Assembly (NCBI GenBank): GCA_030998015.1
Contig: JARWMV010000243.1
Coordinates: 806,001 to 870,000 of the forward strand
DNA from: Ceratorhiza oryzae-sativae
Taxonomy: Eukaryota; Basidiomycota; Agaricomycetes; Cantharellales; Ceratobasidiaceae
Direction: 5' to 3'
DNA: 64,000 nt
Positions 7,388 to 57,396 of the stretch are shown here, piece by piece. A model generated the notes under the pieces. That model was not told where the DNA came from. It saw only the letters and a program-made list of their open reading frames with translations, and made no database searches. The first letter of the stretch is position 1. The number at the start of each line of letters is the position of its first letter. The position numbers were made by a program, and so were the translations under genes.

Positions 7388-10300
7388 ATGAGTTCTCCGC
7401 TCGCTTTCCCGCCCTCGGAGGACGGCACCCCGCGTGGGCGTTGTCAACCGTTGTTTGCCCCTGCAACGCCTGCCATCGGCACACCTGGCTCGGTCCGGTT
7501 CAATGACAGTATGTTGGCGTGTTTATGCGGAGACAAAAGCTCATAAATAGATGTAGCTTTGATGGCCAGTTCGCCTCTTGCGTTCCCAGAAGGATCTTCG
7601 TCTCCTGCTCGCCAGCCTCAAACACCTCGGCGTCTGTTCAGGCCTTCGTGAGCACATCGTTGCTCACATCTTATGCGCGTCTAACAACTTGTAGCTCGGA
7701 TCCACCTCTATCTGGAGGGCCAACTCCACGGGCTTCTCGCCCTCGTTCAGACTTGCGTTCGGCAGCAGCAAGAAACACTCTTCGCAGGAGCCAGCCACCT
7801 TCGACCCCGGGAGGTCTTCCACCTTCAACACCCGGAGGCGACGACCGAATCGCCTTTCCGAGCAGCTCGGCGGGCGCACCGACTCCAAGCAACCAAACAC
7901 TCTCGGCACAGGCTCTACCTTCCGCAGATGACGGTGTCGAAAGGCTCGCTTGGGGTAGTACCATCACCCATAACGAAGTCTTTCACGCATTTTCCGACTT
8001 TTTGCGGAATTTCAAGGCCAAGTACCGTACTGTCTTTGACCGCGAACGACGCGTTCCTACCCGCGCGATTGCTCGTCCCACAGATGGGGAGCGGCTAGTC
8101 TATCAAGGATACCTCCAAAAAATGCTCATCACGGACCAATACCAGCTCAATCTGGATCTGGTTGACTTGCAAGCCTACGCACCTACGAAAAAGCTGCACA
8201 ATGCGCTTATCAAGTTCCCTCAAGAAGTTGTGCCGATGCTGGATCAGTGTTTGGCGGATGCGATGGACGAACTTGTTGCTCAGCAGGATATGCATGACCG
8301 TGCTATGGACGTCGTGTACAAGGTCCGACCATTCGTCAGTGACGGCGCAGTCAATATGCGCGATTTGAACCCGAGTGACACGGACAAGCTTGTCGCTATA
8401 AAGGGCCTTGTCATTCGTGCTACGCCTATTATTCCCGATATGTCTGAAGGCGAGCCTTGCTTCCACCTCTGATGTTCTACTTCTTAACTGATATTTACTA
8501 TAGCCTTCTTCCGTTGCCTAATCTGCCACCACACAATGCAAGTTCAAATCGACCGGGGCAGAATTGCCGAACCAAACCGATGCCCACGCGAAGTATGCGC
8601 CTCCCCAGGCAGCATGACTCTGATCCACAATCGTTCCACATTCGCCGACCGGCAGATCGTCCGGCTACAAGAAACGCCCGATGTCGTTCCGGCCGGTCAA
8701 ACCCCGCATACCGTCTCTCTAGGGTGTTACGATGAACTGGTGGATATGTGCAAACCCGGCGATCGAATTACTGCGACTGGAATATTCCGAGCTGTGCCTG
8801 TACGCGCGAACCCTCGTCAACGCGCTGTGAAAGCCTTGTTTAGAACGTATTTGGACGTCCTGCATGTTCAGAAGGGCTCTGTTGGTCGGTTGGGCCTGGA
8901 TGCGAGCACCCGTGAGGAGTCGGAACGTCACGCAGGAGCCATGGGTGTTGGAGGAGAAGACGAAGACGATGTTGGGCTTGAGGAAGATGCGGAAGGAAGA
9001 GAGGAAGATACAAGAGCGAAACAAATGGAAGCAACGTTGCGCCAGATCAGCGAGCGGCCAGACGTGTATGAACTTTTGGCGAGGTCGTTGGCGCCCAGTA
9101 TCTGGGAATTGGAGGACGTGAAAAAGGGGATTTTGTTGCAGGTCAGTCTAAACTCTTGGGTTCACTTGTCGTACCAATCTCTGACGAGCCGGGTAGTTGT
9201 TCGGAGGAACGAATAAGAGTGTAGCACGTGGTGGAGGCGGAGGAGGACCACGGTATCGGGGAGACATTAATGTGCTGCTTGTTGGCGACCCTGGTACGAG
9301 TAAGAGTCAGATCTTGCAGGTGCGCACGCTTTCACGCGCGCATACAAAGCAATGCTAAATTTGCATAATTCTAGTACGTCCATAAGATTGCCCCTCGAGG
9401 AGTCTACACGTCCGGCAAGGGATCCTCAGCGGTTGGTTTAACTGCATATGTAACGCGTGACCCGGATTCGAAGCAGCTTGTTCTCGAGAGGTAAATGTTC
9501 TTCTACGTGCATGAAGGAGTGGTTTGTCTAACGAATTTTCGACATAGTGGCGCACTTGTTCTGAGCGACGGAGGCGTATGTTGCATCGACGAGTTTGATA
9601 AGATGTCGGACGCGACGAGGAGCGTGTTGCATGAAGTTATGGTTCGTCGGTTCTATATGATTCTTGCCGTTATTTTTACTCACACCTTCAATCATAGGAG
9701 CAACAAACTGTGTCGATAGCCAAAGCCGGAATCATCACGACCCTCAATGCTCGTACCTCGATTCTTGCGGCTGCCAACCCGGTTCAGAGCAAGTATAATC
9801 CAAAATGGCCAATCACACGCAACATCGATCTACCCCCAACGTTGATTTCGCGGTTCGACTTGCTATATCTGGTCTTAGATAACATCGACGAGAGCAGCGA
9901 CAGGAGATTGGCGCAACACTTGGTTGGACTTTATTTGGAAGATGTACCGGAGAGTGCTGCTAGGGATATCATCGTAATTCTTTCTTTCTACCGTCCAAGA
10001 AAGGCTTTACTAACCATGTATTGGTTTACAGCCCACAGAAACGCTCACATCCTATATTTCCTTTGCGCGAAACAAGATTCATCCACGACTGACTGAAGAG
10101 GCTGGAAACGAACTTGTTTCGTCGTACGTTGCATTACGCAAACTTGGCTCAGATGCACGGTCCAACGAACGCCGAATAACTGCCACGACTCGTCAACTCG
10201 AGAGCATGATTCGTTTGTCCGAGGCTCATGCGCGCATGCGTTTCTCCTCCCACGTCGAGCTGGGAGACGTTCAAGAGGCCTGTCGACTCATGCGTGAAGC

Positions 10301-18472: not shown

Positions 18473-21400
18473 TCAAATCTTTTCAAAAGCAAAGGCGATA
18501 TAGAAGTCTACGAACACAAGCTATCACTTTAGTGGCTTTGAACTGAACGGTGAAAAAACTTACTCGCCGCTTGCCACTGCTCCCTGGTCATGTGGCTATT
18601 TCCTTGTTGGTCAACAACTTTCATTTTACGCAAAAGCCGCTTGAGCTCTGGGTCTTGTCGCCCGTTCATGAAAAAGTCGCGAAACTCAGAACGATAGACC
18701 GCTTTCAGCCCATGCTTAAATGCGAGACTGAAAGCATGATTAGCTATCCAAACCTTGAAGGAACGTACAACCCTACGTTTTCAGCTCATCCCATCGAACA
18801 ACGTATTCAGGTACTTCTTCTATGGTATCAAACAAGTTGAACCAGTATTTGTGTCCGTACACTGGTTGCTGCTGTTTACTGTCAAATCGAACGCGATAAA
18901 CCGAGTTTCCGAAGGAGAACTCGTTTGTCTCAAGTTCGTTGAGCTTGGATCTACGAGGAATGAGGGTCAGCGGCACACGCGTATTTTTGCACGGCTTACA
19001 AGAGAAAATCCGAGTTCGGTATAGTGCCCAAGAATACACCGCCTTTTCGAAGATATTCTGAGACGTTTTTGAGCACAGTATTAGCTTTATCCATAGACTC
19101 AAAGGCGTATTGCAAACGAAATTGCATAGAAACAACATCGAACGGTGTACTGAGGCGTTCTGGGGGGATAATGACACTGATGTGGCCCTGATAGAATGTG
19201 AACAGTGAACCTAAAGAAACCCTATTTCACCTACATTGAAATAATCAAATGAATAAAACGCTGCGTCGAACCGCTGTGAAGGATGAAGTTTTGCGTGTCG
19301 ACGTCGCGCTTCGACTATGTTCTTGTCAAGAATGTCTAAATAGACTTAAGCAACAGCAGCCAAACTAAGGCGCAACTGCCATACCAATTCCGATATATTC
19401 GTTTATCATAGCATTACCCCATTTATTCATATCTCCGCCTTTTGCGCACCCAAGATCAAGGACCTTGCCGGATACCATCGAGCCATCTATGCTCCCGGCA
19501 CTCTGGGTTAGCGGCCTACGGCCAAACTTGAGGATAAAAGCGGATTTAACCCAGTTGTTGAAACAACGTAGGGCAATCATGGGCGATTCTTGGCGGGCGC
19601 GAATGCTAGCGTCCTTCTGTTCCTGCTCTACAGAGCTATTGGGCTGTCGAGAGCTCACGTCAGTAGAGCCAGCACGGTAGCCCCCAGCCCCAGCTCCGCC
19701 CGTCTGTTCCCCGTTAGGTGGATTGTTTCCAAGCTTGACCTTGTCTTGTGAAATTTTGTCATGCGGCGCAGGGCCTGGATCCAGGGGCTGAAATGAAGCA
19801 TTATCATCCCGACGTGGCAAGGAAGCCCCAGGTGGCAATTCTGGACCTCCACAGGCACTCGGGGCCTCGATTCCAGCAGCGTGCATAATTCGTGCGAGCC
19901 ATTCAGGTGCCTTTGGTACATCGATGCACAAGTCACCAATCACGCTAACTGTTGGGAGTAGGCCACGCTCGAATGCCTCAGCTGAGCATATGCGCTTCTG
20001 TCGAAGAGCACAGAAGAGTTTCTCGACGAGTAAGACGACTCTTGCACCTCCATCGAGAGCGGCGTTAACTATCTTGTCAACAAATACCTGACGATACTCC
20101 ACGGGTAAGGTCTCAAGTGCCATGATTGCTTCTTCGACATTCTCTACTGCTAGGTATTCCTACTTGTCTATGAGCTCTTCACAAAATGTCCATGCACAGA
20201 ACAATTTGCATCACCTTAATATCTTCATTCACCCTCCTCTCTATATCGGCTTCGGATACCAAATTTTGAGTCGCAGCAGCAGCAGCAGCGTCAGGCAGAT
20301 CTCCGGTGTTGCTATTTTCGGCGGGACCTGGCCTATGTATAGCCAACGAGTTTAACCCCTCGCACAAAGTTTCCTCATCTACCGCTGGTAACTCAGCCGG
20401 TTGGACGTCCATGCCCGACTTGGGAATACATGCACTTCTAGAAATTGACATAGCTCCTGTTTGGGATGAAATTTCCATTCGGGCAATATCCGGCGTAATC
20501 GAGCCGTTTGCATTCGATCCCATCTTAGACGGAGCTGTATTTTGCTGCTTTAACTCGCCCTTACCGGGTGCATGTGTCTTATTCAGAATTGGGCTCGTCC
20601 GTTTGAGGTTATCGTTAGGGTTGGACACGCCTGCGGGCATGGAAAAAGCTGGAGCTTTGGGATTAAGTCTGCTCGTGCTCTGTCTGCTAAATTTTTGATT
20701 ATGAACTCCAGTATTTTCCCAAATCTGGGATCCAGGATTTGAAGTAACCGCGATTCGCTTGGTTTGACCTCGCGGAATAGCCGTAGTAGAACGAGCTTGC
20801 CAGCCCCGTTGACGAAGTTCAATACTGTCCTGTTTATCGATTATCAATACAACACACAAGAAGAAACCTTGGGAAGACACACCTGCAACATGAATTTCAT
20901 GCGCGGATTAATTTTATTTGCTTCTATCATCTCGATTATCTGCGCAAAATAGATATCCATATGGTTCTTTCCATCAGGAGTATCCAAAATTTGGCCTACG
21001 GTCGCAAGAAGCTGACACAAGCTCTCGATTTCTTCCTCTTCTGGATTGGCCACGTCGGATAACAGCTTGATGATACATTCGTGCATGATACGAGTTGTAA
21101 GCATCTGAAGCTTAAAAAGCTCGCCGATGAACCGAATGAGTCCGAGACCTTGTCGCTTGGCCTTAGCAGCCGCGTAATATTCGTCCGAGTACAATGCAAC
21201 CTCGCCATTGGTAGAACTAGTAGTCTCGGCTACCACATCTGCATTCGTTCGGCTAGCAATCAGTGCAGCAGCAGCTTCTTTCGCTGACCAGCCGCGCTCA
21301 AAGTCCTCCTGGCACCGGTTGAGCAAGTATCTGCGGAAGAGCAGCCCGCCAGTAATTGGTTGACCCTCGGGGTTCCGAGTGGTATCGTCCTGGATGTTGG

Positions 21401-21920
21401 GTGACACACTCTCCATCATTTTTCGACATAATCGCGCATACATCTCGCTAAAAGCAGCCTCGTCCTTGGCCTTGTCGAATACCAGCTTGATTACTTGAAT
21501 CAGCGTCGAGCCATCCTTTTCCTGCTCACTTCTGTTTGCCCAATCGATAATTTGATCAGAGATAGACTCGAAATTTTCCATGGTGAGCTTGTTGAGTAAG
21601 GATTTGACTTTGCGCTCTGCGATTTGATGCGGCTCAGCCTGCTGAAGCATAAACCGAGAAGGGCGGGAAGGGCGTGGGAAAGGATTGGCAGGAGCCGAGA
21701 GCACGGCAGGCTCGAGAGCCCCCGATGGATCATTTTGAGATTCCCGTGGGTGATTTTTGCGTTTTGAGCTGCCACGATAATTCTGGGCATGCTTTGCCTT
21801 GGGCCCGCCAGTAGATTGATTTGGGTCTCCTTTGGGTTGAGGGCGTCCCGACGTCCGCGTACGGGTATCTGAAATATTCACGTTCGGGCCCCTTCTGTTA
21901 AACCTGGTTTGGTTGTCCAT
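18473..21920 (-). CDS. Fusion: eIF4G-like MIF4G+MA3 scaffold joined to mRNA cap guanine-N7 methyltransferase
   Basis: Eight exons (21920-20883, 20829-20215, 20159-19385, 19335-19235, 19187-19000, 18950-18777, 18727-18564, 18507-18473) with GT-AG introns sum to 3090 nt, an intact frame of about 1029 residues. Residues ~102-346 form a MIF4G domain of eIF4G ([48 protein letters not shown], then [14 protein letters not shown]). Residues ~347-551 are a low-complexity linker with poly-Ala. Residues ~552-647 are MA3 ([26 protein letters not shown]). Residues ~738-1029 are an ABD1/RNMT-type enzyme: [21 protein letters not shown] motif [63 protein letters not shown]. The MA3 domain, linker and SAM motif lie in one exon, so the fusion does not depend on a predicted intron. 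ABD1 enzymes methylate the 5' cap of mRNA. eIF4G recruits the 43S complex. Confidence 0.9.
20274..20290 (-). repeat. Trinucleotide (GCT/CAG) tract encoding poly-Ala
   Basis: Six CAG-type units on the + strand encode a run of Ala residues in the linker between the MIF4G and MA3 domains of the fusion gene. A short candidate length polymorphism. Confidence 0.6.
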
Positions 21921-23911: not shown

Positions 23912-26900
23912 ATGTCGTCTGACGCAGAGGCGACGCCCAAAGCTCCTCGTCGCGGCACGAGAGACCGCAAGGCCGTCAAGCCGTTTGCGTCCCGTGGGTT
24001 TATTTCCCAAGCCCTTCAGTCTTGTATGCTAATATCCCTTCAGAATCTCAGCCCACGCGAAAGAGAAAGCGTCCGGAGGTCGAGCAAAACAGCAGCGACG
24101 CTGAAGGGACCACCGGCGGAAGATCGACAGGGAAAGAGGATGGAGATTCTTCAGAAGAAGAGCGAGCTGAAGAGGAACCTCAGGAGGAGGAAAGTGAACA
24201 GAGCGAAGAGGAAGAGGGAGAGGAATACAAGGCTCCACGGTTATCTTCTGGTACTGGCCGGGGACGCGGGAGAGGCAGGGGTCGGGGCAAGGCTACCTCC
24301 GGCACATCGCGGACGGCCAACAAGAAGTCTGCCCCTGCCAAACCCCGTGCGTCCAAGGTGAGAGGAAAGAGCGAGGGTGAGACACAAGTCGTTGGGGACA
24401 TTGCGATTGCCAAGGACAATGCGTTGTTCAGTGAGTGCTGCCGTTTAAGCGCTCTTTCTCCAGCACCAACTCGCTTTATAAGATGCATTATTAAACCCAT
24501 CAGCTGCGCTCCAATCGGTCGTCGACGACTACTTCGAGTCCTATATTCAGTCGCCCTCGGCGGCTCTTGCAGACCTTGCGAACTGCATACTTCGCGCATG
24601 TGGTTGTAACGCTTCTTTGGATTCGGATGAAGTTTTGGACAGCGATAATGTCGTCGATAAGCTTGATGATCTCATAGAGGCGGCCAAAAAGGTGGGGTTT
24701 AAAATGATCTCTCCCGCCAATCTGGATACTTAAAACGACGTTCCCTCTAGGAAACATCTCCAACCTATCCGCTCGCTTCCAAGAGTCCGACGTACAAGAA
24801 ATTTCGCAAGTCACTCTCAGAGCTGCTGCATCGACTTATTCAAACTGCTGCCGATCTCCCTCAACCATCTCCTCTATACCCTGCTTCGGACGACACGGGG
24901 CTGTTGCCAGTTCTCCAACCATGGATAGTCTGCATGTCGACGTCGCTTGTCCGAAGCTTCCGCCATACTGGGACGGTTGTCGCTCTTGAAATGGAATCTG
25001 CGTTGTGCGAAGTTGCTCGGGACGTTGAAAAGGAAGGTGAGGTTTTAGGACGACAGCGGGAAGCCGAGCGCAAGCGGCGCGCCGCCGCTTCTACCAAGAG
25101 CAAGGGGAAAACACCACGAGAGAAAGAGCTGGATAGCAAGGCTGAAGACGTCAAGAAGAGAAGGGGGGTTCTAAACGAATACCTGAAGGAGTTCTTCGAC
25201 GAGTGAGCCGTGAAGCCCTACGTAGTTTCAGTTGTTAACCTTGCTTGGGCAGTGTCTTTGTTCATCGCTATAGGGATGCCGACCCCGGAATTCGGGCGGA
25301 CTGCGTCCGGGAGTTGGGCAAATGGATGAAAACACACCCAGCATACTTCCTAAGCGGCCAATATCTCCGCTACATAGGCTCTTTACTGTCGGATTTGGCA
25401 AGCGTATTCCATTCAAACATTTCTCGGAAGCTGACAGTACTTGTAGAGCACGTCTGTCCGCTCGGAGGCTATCAAGGCTCTTTCGGCGCAGTATACTTCT
25501 TCAGATAACAGCACTGTACTCGCTTTGACAAACTTTACCGAACGATTCAAGCCTCGACTCATTCAAATGGCCGCTCAAGACTCTGACGTTGGCGTTCGAG
25601 TAGCTGTTGCTCGTGTGCTCACAGATATTGACAATCAGGGTTTGCTCGAAGAGGATGAACAAGCGCCCCTTTGCTTGCTCCTGTTCGATGTCGAGGCTCG
25701 AGTTCGCCGTGCCGTGGCTGGATTCGTCCATGGGGTCTGGGATGCAGCTGTCGAGGAGAAGTTGGTGAGCAAAGGTAGCAAGGGAAAGGAAAAGGACAAG
25801 GACAAGCAGCGTGCAGGAATCAAGTGCTTCCTGTCGCTCCTCGTCGGCTGGATAAAGCTCGCGGACGCTTCGAACGCCAATGGAGTAGCCGACGCAGCCG
25901 ATGACGCCGAAAACTCACAACCTCAAGCCCACGCGACGTCTGGAATGGTCGTCTCGCTCTTGCTTAACTCGCCCGGGACCAAGTCGCGTATTGCTCTTGC
26001 TGTTTCGGCTCTCTGGGACGAACTTCCTGTGCTGCGTGAATGGGAGGCCTTTTTGGACCACATCTTGTTGGATCATTCGGGGGGAGGAGAAGCTGGCGTG
26101 ATGGCCAGCCCTTCCAAACGACGCGCAGCGAAGAACGCAGACCAAGAAGGGGATCCCGCATGGCGTTTGAGTGAAGCTGAGGAGAGCGTTGGGATGGAAG
26201 TGTTGATTGCCGTGTTGGAGTGTGTCGAGGAGGAAGCAGCATTGGGCAAAAAGGTGTGTTTCATCGACCTGGCTTCTCTCTGTGAGAAAGTTTATAGTGC
26301 TTCAGGGAGACGACGAGTCTGTAACGATGGATATTACTCGTGCATTGATGAAGGCTTTACCTCGCCTGTTTGCCAAGGTCCAAACAGATGAAAAGCGAGT
26401 TGGCGATGTCTTGGTACTTCCGCAACTCATGAATTTGGATATGTATGTTGAACTGAGAGAAACAGCGGTACGTCGGGGATTCTGCTCTCAATGCTCTGGC
26501 TTGTTGACTTGGTGCAACAGGCGTATGAACAGCTCTGGACCGATGTATCCAAACAATTTATGACCCACTCGTCTCCCACCGTTCTTCGTCATGCGGTTGC
26601 GACGATCCAGCATCTCTCCCAAACTGCCAGCCTAGCAAATACGAATGCCACCAAGATTATCGAGCTCGAAGACGAACTCGCTGGCTCTGTTCGTGAGCTT
26701 CTCGCTGGTCGAGAGGAATTAGATATTGTCACGTTTACCGAGGACGAGGTGCATGCGCTGAGCGCGTTTGTGTTGAGATTGCACACATTGTATGGTGTAC
26801 GAGATATGACACGCTGGATGGAAGAGGATGACGGCGGAAAAGTTGCCAGAACGGTGGATACTCTGGGGGCGTTGTCTGAGCGCGGAAGGCTAGGTTACAA

Positions 26901-53414: not shown

Positions 53415-55759
53415 TCACATTCCTCTCCAAATTTTGTCGGCAACGCTCACAACGTCTTTCATCGCCCGCACATTATGCACCCTCACGATATCCGCCCCGG
53501 CCTGTACGCACACCCCAACCGCAGCAGCAGTCGCCCAATCCCGCTCTTTCGCGTCCTTTTCCGCATTTCCCCGACAATTGCCCCAAGGTAGGATTTGCGT
53601 GACGTCCCAGCCAGAACAGGAAAGCTGTGAGGCCCAGAGAGATGTTTGAGATTCCGAATGAGCTCGAGGTTGCCATCTACGGTTTTACTAAACCCGTATC
53701 CGGGATCGACGATAATGTTCCAACGTCTGACTCCCGATTTGAGAGCTTCTTGAATACGCGCACCGAGCTCGCTTTGGACGCCTTTGAGCACTCCTCCAGG
53801 GTAGAATTTATCTTCATGTGCTGCTCTCGCGAGTGCATGAGTATGATTGGACATCCGAATTCGTGTGAGACGTCGAATGTGGTTGGTCCGTCCCGAGGAA
53901 CGGGCGAATTGAGGTACTCGCCTCGTCCAGCTCGGACGTCGTTTATCCAGCTCGCTCCCGCTAGAATCGCCTCGCGAGCCACGCTCCCTCTAAATGTGTC
54001 CACGCTAATGACCAGGTTTTTATCCTTTTCCTTTAGCGCTGTGATAAACGGAGTAACCCTATTTATCTCTTCTTCGACAGAAACAACTTCTGCGCCCGGT
54101 CTCGTCGAATATCCACCAATGTCTATGATGCTTGCTCTGATTCGAGGGACCTTTGGACATACGAGAGGGCCGTAGTTAGCTGATTGTGGTCTCCGCCGTC
54201 GGAGAAGGAGTCAGGAGTCGTATTGAGTGTCGCCATGAGGAAAGTTTGCGTTCCCCATGTCCAGTATGATGGAACGGAAGATGAGCTTGGCGAGTTGGTT
54301 GGGAAAAGGGACATGACGCGGCGCATTGGCATTAATTGTGGAGGAAGAGAATCAAGCAGCGTTCGATGGGTATTTTGAGAGCAGGGTGAGTATATGTAGG
54401 GATAATACTATAACCTCGTTAGTCGATGTCCAACTGATATTTCGGATACGCACTCGGCTAAAGGTCTCAATACAAACTCTCGTTCCCGAAGTCGCACATG
54501 GGGAACTTGCAATGGAAGTTTGGTGTCGGGAACATCTACTGAAAGGTCGTCATAAAAGATTATGTCAAGGTCGACAACGCGAGGGCCGTTTCTGAACGTA
54601 GGTGTTCGTCCCACTTGTTCCTCGACGGCTTTAAGCAGCGCGAGTAATTCACTGGGACTTAGGGATGTGTGTATCTAATATTTTATTCACTAGATGTAAT
54701 GGTAAAAATACTGGCGTACTTACTGCACAAGCGCCATTCACAAACGAAGCCTGGTCCTCGTGATACATGGCCTTAGTCTCGTACAAAAAGCTTGTATCCA
54801 AAACCTTCACGCCTTTTCCCTCAAGCATCTTGAGTGCCTTTTCGATGTTTCCAAATCGATCGCCCATGTTGGATCCAAGTGCGAGTATGACAACGTGCCC
54901 TTCGGTTGAAGGGGCATACGATAGCGCTCTTGAAAGCGAGTTACATGCGAGTTTGGCAAAGTCTTTCCAAGAACGAGTGATTTGGACTGCGGCGGCCTTG
55001 GCCATCATCAACGCGCTCGGTTTCCCCACCGGACGGTGATACTCTCGATTCCACGACCAGATTCGAGCGCAGTTTGGGCTATACTCGTTGCGAGGGATTC
55101 AACGGTTTGGTATGATGACTCGACTATGAACTAGGGTGACGTAAATAATCAACTTGCTAGGGCGACAAGTGCGGCTCACGTCAGAAACTCGTGCTACGAG
55201 ACTACGAAAGTCGAATCCAGTAGATGGCAGAGTGGAGGCACTCGGGGTTAGTGTCCACTGTAAGTTTATTCGAACTAGTTGCTTCTCAACACGTTCCCAG
55301 GGATGCAGGCCAATGATTGTGCTGAGCTCGAGGTCTCTTACAAAATAAACGACTTCTTCCTGTTTGTCCGTTCGTCGGTGGAATGTTTGGACGCCAGCGC
55401 CTGGGCATGCAGCAACGCCCGTTGCTTTTCGATCACAGTCTGGACCTCGTGAACGCTAGAAAACTTGGAAAAGCAAGAGTGGGCGATTCCGGCGGCGAGA
55501 GATTCGGCCGACGAAAATTTCCCCTTTTCGTGGGCGCAAGCTTCGGCTGCTTTACAGATAGACCCATAGCTGACCGACTCTTCTAGGTTGTCGACAACAC
55601 TAGCCTGAGCAAGATTATGCGGAACAGTAATCGAAAGTGAGAGCGGTTGAAGTTTTTGTTCAACACCAGGACGCGGCCAGTGGGAATCTCCTAGTGTAGC
55701 ATGACGGACAGACCGTCGACAATGATCAAATCAGACTTGGACAGCATCGAGAATGACAT
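53415..55759 (-). CDS. FOL1: FOL1: trifunctional dihydroneopterin aldolase / HPPK / dihydropteroate synthase
   Basis: Makes dihydropteroate in the folate pathway. The start MSFSMLSKSDLIIVDGLSVM at 55759 opens a first FolB-type domain (LGDSHWPRP, SLSITVPHNL, VSYGSICKAAEACAHEKG). A second FolB domain follows (VRDLELSTIIGLHPWERVEK, INLQWTLTPSA). HPPK comes next (VILALGSNMGDRFGNIEKAL, SFLYETKAMYHEDQASFVNG, RNGPRVVDLDIIFYDD). DHPS follows (FLMATLNTTPDSFSDGGDHN, ASIIDIGGYSTRPGAE, INDVRAGRGEY, PIILMHSRE, KFYPGGVLKGVQSELG, RRWNIIVDPGYGFSKT, FPVLAGTSRKSYLGAIVGE, DWATAAAVGVCVQAGADIVR). It ends ADKIWRGM. The frame is broken by apparent one-base deletions near 55692, 55343, 54153, 53823 and 53560. All active-site motifs survive, so I treat these as likely sequence errors, with a true pseudogene as the alternative. 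Confidence 0.9.
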
Positions 55760-56005: not shown

Positions 56006-57396
56006 ATGATATCTGCTGTGCGTAACCACCTCCGATCCAGGATTTTGCCTTATCTGCAGGCTCCACTCCCTTCAACCACCACCACCGCCGCGTCTGTATC
56101 CACTGCATCAGCCTTGAATATGACCACACTATCTGAGTTTCTGAAAAGCAACAAGCAATCATTCCTTGCCGACATAAACTCAAACCAAGGCGAGGGTTGG
56201 ACTATCGTCATGGGCAACGAAGCCGGGGGTGAGTACCCCCTCAACCCTTTCCCCCACCCATTACTGACGTACTGCTAGACCTTGACTCGTGCGCGAGCGC
56301 TATATCGGCATCATACCTCTCCACTAAACTCGATAATATCCCTACGATAGCTCTGATCCAAACATTCCGCGCCGATTTTGCACTTCGGCCAGAGAACCTC
56401 CTTGCCTTTGAGTTTGCTCATCTGGACCCGAGCCACAATGACCTTCTTACGCTCGATGACCTCACTTCAGTCCATTCCTCTATCCAAATTGCGTACCTCA
56501 TTTGCTCTTGTAGATCACAATAGTCTGTTGTCTAAATTTGTCACCGATGGAGAAGATCGCGTGACCGCTATTTTCGACCACCACGAAGACGAAAAGCGAC
56601 ACCTAGGCGCTAAACCGAGGATCATTAATACGGCAGGGTCATGCTCATCCATAGTTGCGGACTATTATCGCAGCCGATTCTCGCCCGATGCAGCAGCCCT
56701 CGACCTGGCTTCGCTCATGCTCTCTGCCATCGTCATTGATACAAGCGGACTCAAGGAAAAGGAGGACGGCGGAAAGGCAGATGAGACGGATATAGAAGCT
56801 AGCAAGTTCCTCTATCCCATCTCCACTTTCGGATTCATCTCCGCCACCGGTCAAGCCTCCACCGAGAGCAAAACGATCCCAGACCTCACGGAGCTCCTCT
56901 CCCAAGCCAAGCTGTCCGTCTCCCACCTTTCGGGACGAGACCTCCTTCGCCGGGACTACAAGAAGTACGAATTCGGATCAGAGTCTACCGGGAACTTTAC
57001 TCGCGTTGGGCTCTCGACCGTACCAATGGGTCTAGATGACTGGATCGAACGAGATGGGGCCACCAAGTTTTGGTCTGACCAAGCTCAATGGATCAAAGAA
57101 GAAGGCCTCACTTTTTCTGGCATTCTTACCACCTTCCGCACCAAGAACACGCAAAAGCATAAACGCGAAATGCTTGTTGTGTTCCCGTCCCGGACGGAGT
57201 TGTGCCGGACGCGCCAACTGGCCTAGAGAAGAAGCTATACGATGGCATAGAGTCGAACGAAACACTTGATGCCGAACAGAGAGACTTGAAAGGGATTGAA
57301 GGGCGACGGGCTCGAGCATGGAAGCAGAAGAATAAGAAGGCAACAAGGAAGCAGGTTGCACCCGCTATCAAAGCGATCATCGAGGCGGGTTGGTAA
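56006..57396 (+). CDS. PPX1: Exopolyphosphatase PPX1 (DHH phosphoesterase family)
   Basis: Cleaves terminal phosphates from inorganic polyphosphate; a metal-dependent DHH-type enzyme. The start MISAVRNHLRSRILPYLQAP is Arg-rich and could be a mitochondrial signal. A downstream Met (MTTLSEFLKSNKQSFL) would give a shorter form. Motifs in order: IVMGNEAG|DLDSCASAIS (metal-binding DxD), TSFALVDHN, the DHH signature AIFDHHEDEK, NTAGSCSSIVADYY, AIVIDTSGLKEKE and the DHHA2 region, ending EKKLYDGIESNETLDAEQRD and a basic tail. One-base deletions appear near 56478 (between TSVHS and PLSKLRTSFAL) and 57187 (between LVVFP and VPDGVVPDAP). It is divergent from FOL1 across about 246 bp. Confidence 0.88.

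What the first reader, a model, noticed from the sequence alone, without database searches (positions are those of the whole stretch)
18473..21920. eIF4G-like scaffold fused in frame to an mRNA cap guanine-N7 methyltransferase
The sequence shows one gene encoding MIF4G, MA3 and an ABD1/RNMT-type methyltransferase. The MA3 domain, linker and SAM motif share one uninterrupted exon (20159-19385), and the eight exons sum to a multiple of three. eIF4G normally bridges the capped mRNA to the ribosome, while ABD1 makes the N7-methyl cap that eIF4E reads. A single chain doing both would couple cap maturation (or cytoplasmic recapping) to initiation-factor scaffolding. I know of no described protein with this architecture; its novelty is my inference.
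Basis: partly seen in the sequence, partly recalled or inferred. Interest (0 to 1): 0.92.

Follow-up and report, generated by a model that had tools for sequence, protein, structure and literature searches.

The report
Translation scaffold fused to altered cap methyltransferase
A fungal gene (close to Ceratobasidium) joins the core of a translation-initiation scaffold to an mRNA-cap methyltransferase whose cap pocket has changed, so it may hold or sense the start of mRNAs rather than methylate it; I found no description of such a protein.

Summary
The fusion is real. Eight exons (21920-18473, minus strand) encode 1029 aa: MIF4G, MA3 and an ABD1/RNMT-type methyltransferase, all above Pfam cut-offs. 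A 3160-nt database contig encodes the same protein (14 differences). It is shorter than the 3448-nt genomic span, so most simply a spliced transcript. Two Ceratobasidium sp. AG-Ba proteins share the architecture and nearly the same join.

The gene is extra: the genome also has a full eIF4G and an ABD1 on other contigs. It combines the last eIF4G exons with ABD1 exons 2-7. The eIF4E-binding motif is absent.

In all four fusion proteins (two lineages) the guanine-pocket His, kept in 195 of 195 other methyltransferases, is Gln; a neighbouring Cys is Arg; a SAM-loop Gly is Ala or Asn. The methyltransferase fold is modelled intact; dN/dS is about 0.08-0.09, with high or saturated dS. I read it as a retained eIF4E-independent eIF4G-like protein with a catalytically altered, possibly cap-reading domain. 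Structure is shown; function is inferred.

The parts
18473..21920 (-). chimeric eIF4G-core / ABD1-type methyltransferase gene, 8 exons, 1029 aa
   Evidence: splice model; P0001
20883..21920 (-). exon 1: about 40 aa without a match to own eIF4G, a short eIF4G-derived stretch, then nearly all of MIF4G
   Evidence: Pfam MIF4G aa 102-353; residues 41-346 match own eIF4G at 68%; PDB eIF4G matches
20215..20829 (-). exon 2: end of MIF4G, disordered linker, start of MA3
   Evidence: frame and splice sites; residues 353 and 543 map to 20811-20809 and 20241-20239; low pLDDT
19385..20159 (-). exon 3: most of MA3, a linker whose DNA found no second copy in the genome, and the start of the methyltransferase with the SAM motif, in one open frame
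19590..19643 (-). join region (residues 724-741): ABD1 homology begins about residue 729-733, at the start of ABD1 exon 2
   Evidence: coordinates
18473..19335 (-). exons 4-8: rest of the methyltransferase; exon sizes 101/188/174/164/35 identical to the last five exons of the own ABD1
19443..19445 (-). codon of Ala790 (SAM-loop Gly in canonical ABD1)
19116..19118 (-). codon of Arg867 (Cys in 160/163 canonical rows)
19110..19112 (-). codon of Gln869 (guanine-pocket His in canonical ABD1)

Best explanation
Well supported: this is a chimeric gene of a Ceratobasidium-like fungus, transcribed at least in a close relative. It is built from the 3' exons of a duplicated eIF4G (MIF4G + MA3, without the eIF4E-binding N-terminus) joined in frame to exons 2-7 of a duplicated ABD1, on a contig other than those of both parents, with signs of purifying selection. 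Inferred: it works as an eIF4E-independent, DAP5-like eIF4G that recruits eIF4A and the ribosome side through MIF4G/MA3. Its C-terminal ABD1 fold probably no longer methylates efficiently but keeps most residues that grip the cap guanine and phosphates, so it would bring the scaffold to (or sense) mRNA 5' ends.
For: Gene model and domains. P0001, 1029 aa on a 3160-nt contig against a 3448-nt genomic span. Same architecture in P0002 and P0003. Parents elsewhere: eIF4G on C235, ABD1 on C234. Identical sizes of the last five exons. One fusion clade in the methyltransferase tree, 100/99, 34 hand-chosen rows. Motif Y....L(hydrophobic) absent from 4 of 4 fusion proteins, present in 2 of 2 AG-Ba eIF4Gs scanned and in own eIF4G. 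Window MIF4G keeps 130 of 144 near-invariant columns. Shared changes His->Gln, Cys->Arg, Ser->Asn and SAM-loop Gly->Ala/Asn, with Glu, Tyr, Tyr, Lys and Arg contacts kept (contact roles from passages of PMC12276006). Methyltransferase pLDDT mostly over 90 from residue 751 on. dN/dS 0.08-0.09 for MIF4G and methyltransferase.
Against: No biochemistry. The four fusion proteins are two pairs of near-identical ones, so two lineages only. An Arg at the Cys position could also block cap binding, and the HYN element, whose Asn contacts the cap ribose in K. lactis Abd1 (the residue is named in a PMC12276006 passage; that it is the HYN Asn is my inference), is not recognisable in the window protein. The one-origin claim rests on the methyltransferase half: MIF4G gives 70/45, MA3 is unresolved. 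The long branches leave decay open; P0003 keeps only 90 of 144 near-invariant MIF4G columns. dS is high or saturated (not computable for MA3), so the ratios are rough. The model is weak in parts of MA3 (residues 610-637 under 50). P0001 is one contig of unknown strain.
Confidence: 0.45

Rival explanations
1. One reading: an active N7 methyltransferase fused to an initiation scaffold, coupling cap methylation or cytoplasmic recapping to translation.
For: Methyltransferase fold modelled intact; Asp794, Asp810, Asp840, Glu954, Tyr870, Tyr1021, Lys791 and Arg822 kept in the window protein; dN/dS well under 1. Trypanosomatid eIF4G1 binds a guanylyltransferase/methyltransferase protein (PMC5750579, passages).
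Against: Pocket His (195 of 195 non-fusion rows) -> Gln; SAM-loop Gly 160/160 -> Ala/Asn; Cys 160/163 -> Arg; Ser 162/162 -> Asn; adenine-contact Asp -> Asn in AG-Ba. A normal ABD1 is present in the genome.
Confidence: 0.15
2. A regulatory or competing eIF4G fragment: MIF4G/MA3 binds eIF4A without eIF4E and dampens or redirects translation; the methyltransferase half is only a stabilising or docking domain with no cap role.
For: eIF4E motif absent; window MIF4G well kept; several short MIF4G/MA3 proteins are listed for Ceratobasidiaceae (P0009, P0013, P0022, P0029, P0038), though some lie on short contigs and may be partial models.
Against: Does not explain why the cap-contact Glu, Tyr and Lys/Arg residues are kept in both lineages.
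Confidence: 0.25
3. A chimera on its way to decay, transcribed but with little function.
For: Long branches in the methyltransferase and MIF4G trees; lost near-invariant residues; odd gaps near the SAM motif in both AG-Ba annotations.
Against: Open frame over 8 exons; dN/dS 0.08-0.09 with high or saturated dS; present in two lineages; of 14 differences to P0001, 10 lie in the 376 residues outside the domains (Fisher p 0.0098).
Confidence: 0.13
4. Annotation or assembly artefact, or read-through of two adjacent genes.
For: False merges may occur in the database: P0121, P0123, P0126 and P0147 carry unrelated domains beside ABD1 (not checked).
Against: Independent contig over the whole chain; the intact parents lie on other contigs; nearly the same join in AG-Ba.
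Confidence: 0.02

Closest known systems
eIF4G (own full-length eIF4G on C235; human eIF4G1)
   Same: MIF4G then MA3; MIF4G 76% identical to own eIF4G
   Different: No N-terminus with eIF4E-binding motif; a methyltransferase is added at the C-terminus
DAP5/eIF4G2 (NAT1/p97)
   Same: eIF4G-type MIF4G without an eIF4E-binding site; PDB 4iul (DAP5 MIF4G) matches
   Different: Separate origin (inferred); carries an ABD1 domain and no W2 domain was found (the DAP5 domain list is recalled)
ABD1/RNMT mRNA cap guanine-N7 methyltransferase
   Same: Whole catalytic fold; 62% identical to own ABD1 over 303 aa; same exon sizes
   Different: Lacks exon 1 and the HY of the HYN motif; pocket His, Cys and SAM-loop Gly changed; attached to an eIF4G core
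Trypanosomatid EIF4E5/EIF4G1/TbG1-IP and EIF4E6/EIF4G5/TbG5-IP complexes
   Same: A capping-enzyme-like protein (guanylyltransferase + methyltransferase in TbG1-IP) binds an eIF4G (PMC5750579, passages)
   Different: Separate proteins in a complex, not one chain; an eIF4E is present

Membership tests
eIF4G | MIF4G (HEAT-1) domain | tested here: met
   164.5 bits; 130 of 144 near-invariant columns kept in the window protein, 90 of 144 in P0003
eIF4G | eIF4E-binding motif Y....L(hydrophobic) | tested here: not met
   absent in 4 of 4 fusion proteins, present in P0014 and P0033; no N-terminal eIF4G match anywhere in the window
eIF4G | binding of eIF4A/eIF3 | not testable with these tools
   needs pull-down
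ABD1/RNMT N7 methyltransferase | family fold and profile | tested here: met
   275.3 bits over 731-1028; Foldseek RNMT E 2.1e-21 and Abd1 E 4.8e-21
ABD1/RNMT N7 methyltransferase | guanine-pocket His and SAM-loop Gly | tested here: not met
   Gln and Ala/Asn in 4 of 4 fusion proteins; His in 195 of 195 and the CGKGG loop in 194 of 195 non-fusion rows
ABD1/RNMT N7 methyltransferase | guanine-contact Glu347 and Tyr416 (yeast numbering) | tested here: met
   Glu954, Tyr1021
ABD1/RNMT N7 methyltransferase | N7 methylation of GpppRNA | not testable with these tools
   enzyme assay needed
DAP5 | MIF4G and MA3 without eIF4E site | tested here: met
DAP5 | C-terminal W2 domain (recalled) | tested here: not met
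   no W2 among the Pfam matches at E 0.001; so it may work like DAP5 but is not a DAP5

The most novel reading that the evidence does not exclude
A cap methyltransferase has been turned into a cap reader. Lacking the eIF4E-binding end of eIF4G, the chimera uses a catalytically altered ABD1 domain, with the cap-gripping Glu, Tyr, Lys and Arg kept, to place an eIF4G core on mRNA 5' ends directly: an eIF4F-like function in one chain without eIF4E, perhaps selective for unmethylated or recapped GpppRNA.
Probability: 0.2. Interest if true: 0.9.

Novelty: new variant of a known kind. Interest (0 to 1): 0.62.

Why it matters
Cap making and cap reading are normally done by separate proteins. A retained natural fusion of the eIF4G core with an ABD1 fold, whose pocket carries the same changes in two lineages, gives a ready test of whether a cap methyltransferase can become a cap-binding translation factor and whether an eIF4G can work without eIF4E in a fungus. 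It would also be a one-chain counterpart to the trypanosomatid complexes in which an eIF4G holds a capping-type enzyme.

Tried and rejected
Read-through of neighbouring genes: rejected, the intact parents lie on other contigs. A missed upstream eIF4E-binding exon: searched with AG-Ba eIF4Gs over the whole window; matches begin only at residue 951 of P0014 and 877 of P0033. The origin of the linker: a 68-base match (75% and 72%) to the MA3 exon of the two eIF4G loci, a 15-base match in L019 (E 0.50) and a 22-base match in L020 (E 0.30), nothing more; no second copy in the genome (301 bases); source unknown. A single origin from the eIF4G half: MIF4G 70/45, MA3 unresolved. Published mutants of the SAM-loop Gly: 0 papers, PMC2271365 not held, nothing useful in the passages of PMC8511950. 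Papers on such a fusion: the listings (14 papers; 12; 11; 14) show none by title or start of abstract; (7 papers) shows no AG-Ba genome paper by title. Only open-licence papers were searched; I read no paper in full, only passages of PMC12276006, PMC5750579 and PMC8511950.

Rows dropped or chosen: methyltransferase rows; 1 had no BLAST match and 31 of 198 were dropped because the match to ABD1 ended early or was short, leaving 163 non-fusion rows. I then checked all 195 non-fusion rows by motif for the His (195 of 195) and the CGKGG loop (194 of 195). Columns filled in under 80% of rows were skipped. The rows of the trees (34, 38 and 35) were chosen by hand. In one search only the 7989 candidates sharing most words were scored. 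In P0002 part of the SAM motif is missing from the annotated protein, so it says nothing on those positions. While checking this report I corrected the Asn815 codon I had first placed wrongly (it is 19321-19319), the join coordinates, and the odds of the decay rival (0.15 to 0.13), because the odds of the five readings had summed to more than one.

Full report
What is there. On the minus strand, exons 21920-20883, 20829-20215, 20159-19385, 19335-19235, 19187-19000, 18950-18777, 18727-18564 and 18507-18473 give one frame of 1029 codons plus TGA. Pfam finds MIF4G (102-353, 164.5 bits), MA3 (543-645, 35.8 bits) and the mRNA cap guanine-N7 methyltransferase family (731-1028, 275.3 bits). An AlphaFold2 model of the near-identical P0001 (75 aligned sequences, mean pLDDT 65.5, pTM 0.48) shows three folded parts between disordered linkers. 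The methyltransferase is mostly over 90 from residue 751 on, with a dip at 771-780; MIF4G is mostly 65-88 with a dip near 231-260; MA3 is 70-82 at its start and under 50 at 610-637. Foldseek matches the methyltransferase to human RNMT and yeast Abd1 (E 2.1e-21 and 4.8e-21), and the MIF4G to yeast and human eIF4G with lower scores and poor superposition (E about 2e-10 to 4e-9).

Is it one transcript? P0001, source tag 'lgn' (I take this to be the Logan assemblies of public sequencing runs; recalled), is 1029 aa on a contig of 3160 nt. The genomic span from start to stop is 3448 nt with 358 nt of introns, so that contig cannot be the unspliced gene. It agrees with the eight-exon model at 1015 of 1029 residues. 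An intronless genomic copy in another strain would look the same, but this genome showed one copy only. Of the 14 differences, 10 fall in the 376 residues outside the Pfam domains and 4 in the 653 inside (Fisher p 0.0098).

Who else has it? Of the 100 methyltransferase hits (candidates of roughly 570-1800 aa), 3 carry MIF4G and MA3 as well: P0001, P0002 and P0003. The last two are from Ceratobasidium sp. AG-Ba, are named 'mRNA cap guanine-N7 methyltransferase', lie on two contigs of different length, and have an extra N-terminal MA3. In one search the 120 listed of 612 hits hold the same three. In one search (120 listed of 460, candidates of roughly 260-840 aa) none is listed with MIF4G. Absence elsewhere is therefore not proven. 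The window genome's ABD1 is 83% identical to that of AG-Ba over 576 positions and 89% to that of Ceratobasidium sp. 428 over 304, so the window comes from a relative of these; the species is not known.

Where did it come from? The genome also has an eIF4G on C235 with the eIF4E motif in its open frame (YDRDFLLQF), a second eIF4G-like gene about 97 kb away, and a separate ABD1 of 567 aa on C234. The last five exons of that ABD1 are 101, 188, 174, 164 and 35 nt, identical to exons 4-8 of the fusion. ABD1 homology in the fusion begins at ABD1 exon 2; the His-Tyr of the HYN motif is missing in the window protein and in AG-Ba, while the Asn is kept in AG-Ba. The eIF4G part starts shortly before MIF4G: tblastn of the 1556-aa AG-Ba eIF4G matches the window only from residue 951 on, while its eIF4E motif is at 766. 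The methyltransferase halves of the four fusion proteins form one clade (100/99), placed beside the ABD1s of this genome and AG-Ba (84/86, so not firmly), on long branches: 0.19 shared, then 0.51 and 0.42, against 0.048 and 0.026 for those two ABD1s. The eIF4G half neither supports nor rejects one origin (70/45 for MIF4G; MA3 unresolved).

Is it kept? Against own eIF4G, MIF4G has dN 0.144 and dS 1.55 (ratio 0.093). Against own ABD1, the methyltransferase has dN 0.241-0.263 and dS 2.9-3.1 (ratio 0.08-0.09). For MA3, dS is beyond saturation. The ratios mix both branches, so I take them only as a sign of long purifying selection. For comparison, the younger eIF4G copy L019 against L018 gives 0.349 for MIF4G. 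MIF4G keeps 130 of 144 near-invariant columns in the window protein, 135 in L019's copy, but 90 in P0003.

Is it still an enzyme? Among 163 non-fusion methyltransferase rows, the His of the [QM]F..HY motif is invariant (163/163; 195 of 195 when the dropped rows are added by motif) and is Gln in all four fusion proteins. The Cys two places before it (160/163) is Arg in all four; one non-fusion row, P0231, has Arg there too and keeps the His. A SAM-loop Gly (160/160) is Ala in the window protein and P0001, Asn in AG-Ba; a Ser (162/162) is Asn. In all, the window protein keeps 74 and P0003 73 of 90 near-invariant columns. By position these residues are His253, Cys251, Gly174 and Ser199 of yeast Abd1. 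Passages of PMC12276006 say that in K. [quoted passage not shown] Those reported for guanine N1/N2 (Glu), N3 (Tyr), O6 (Tyr) and the phosphates (Lys172, Arg203) are kept; AG-Ba has lost the Asp that contacts adenine N6. Arg144, Asn147 and Lys151 of that paper lie before or at the join and were not mapped. So the donor-acceptor interface was remodelled, while much of the grip on the cap was kept. Loss of methylation is an inference.

Most likely function. Supported: a chimera with transcript evidence, retained in two lineages, without an eIF4E site and with an altered cap-methyltransferase pocket. Inferred: MIF4G/MA3 recruit eIF4A as in DAP5, and the ABD1 fold brings the chain to 5' ends or acts as a docking domain. 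The cap-reader form is the boldest version I cannot exclude. The genome has IF4E-family matches on three contigs, so ordinary cap reading is not missing.

Known relatives. eIF4G, DAP5, ABD1/RNMT and the trypanosomatid complexes in which TbG1-IP (guanylyltransferase + methyltransferase) binds EIF4G1 (PMC5750579, passages) are the nearest. As far as I know none is a single chain with this make-up, and the listings show no description within open-licence papers.

Noticed in passing
L019 (G000:C235:1357001-1366900): A second eIF4G-like gene about 97 kb from the full eIF4G: MIF4G dS 0.24 and MA3 dS 0.02 to it, a divergent start of MIF4G, and a further MA3-like stretch at L019:8468-8872.
   Followed up: partly
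P0121, P0123, P0126, P0147: Other ABD1 records listed with unrelated domains (short-chain dehydrogenase, aminopeptidase, NACHT-type; names recalled from the Pfam accessions or the record names); perhaps merges of neighbouring genes, not checked.
   Followed up: no
P0231 (Rhizoctonia solani): A non-fused ABD1 on a fairly long branch (0.25) that also has Arg at the Cys251 position but keeps the His.
   Followed up: no
window 8488-9213(+), 25447-26388(+), 53680-54210(-), 56357-57223(+): Neighbouring frames match MCM (helicase), a stromalin/HEAT stretch below the curated cut-off, a pterin-binding enzyme domain and a DHHA2 domain (4 of 10 frames scanned matched anything); nothing that explains the fusion.
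   Followed up: partly
P0004, P0009, P0022, P0025, P0038: Several Ceratobasidiaceae records have short or doubled MIF4G/MA3 proteins besides eIF4G; some may be partial models.
   Followed up: no
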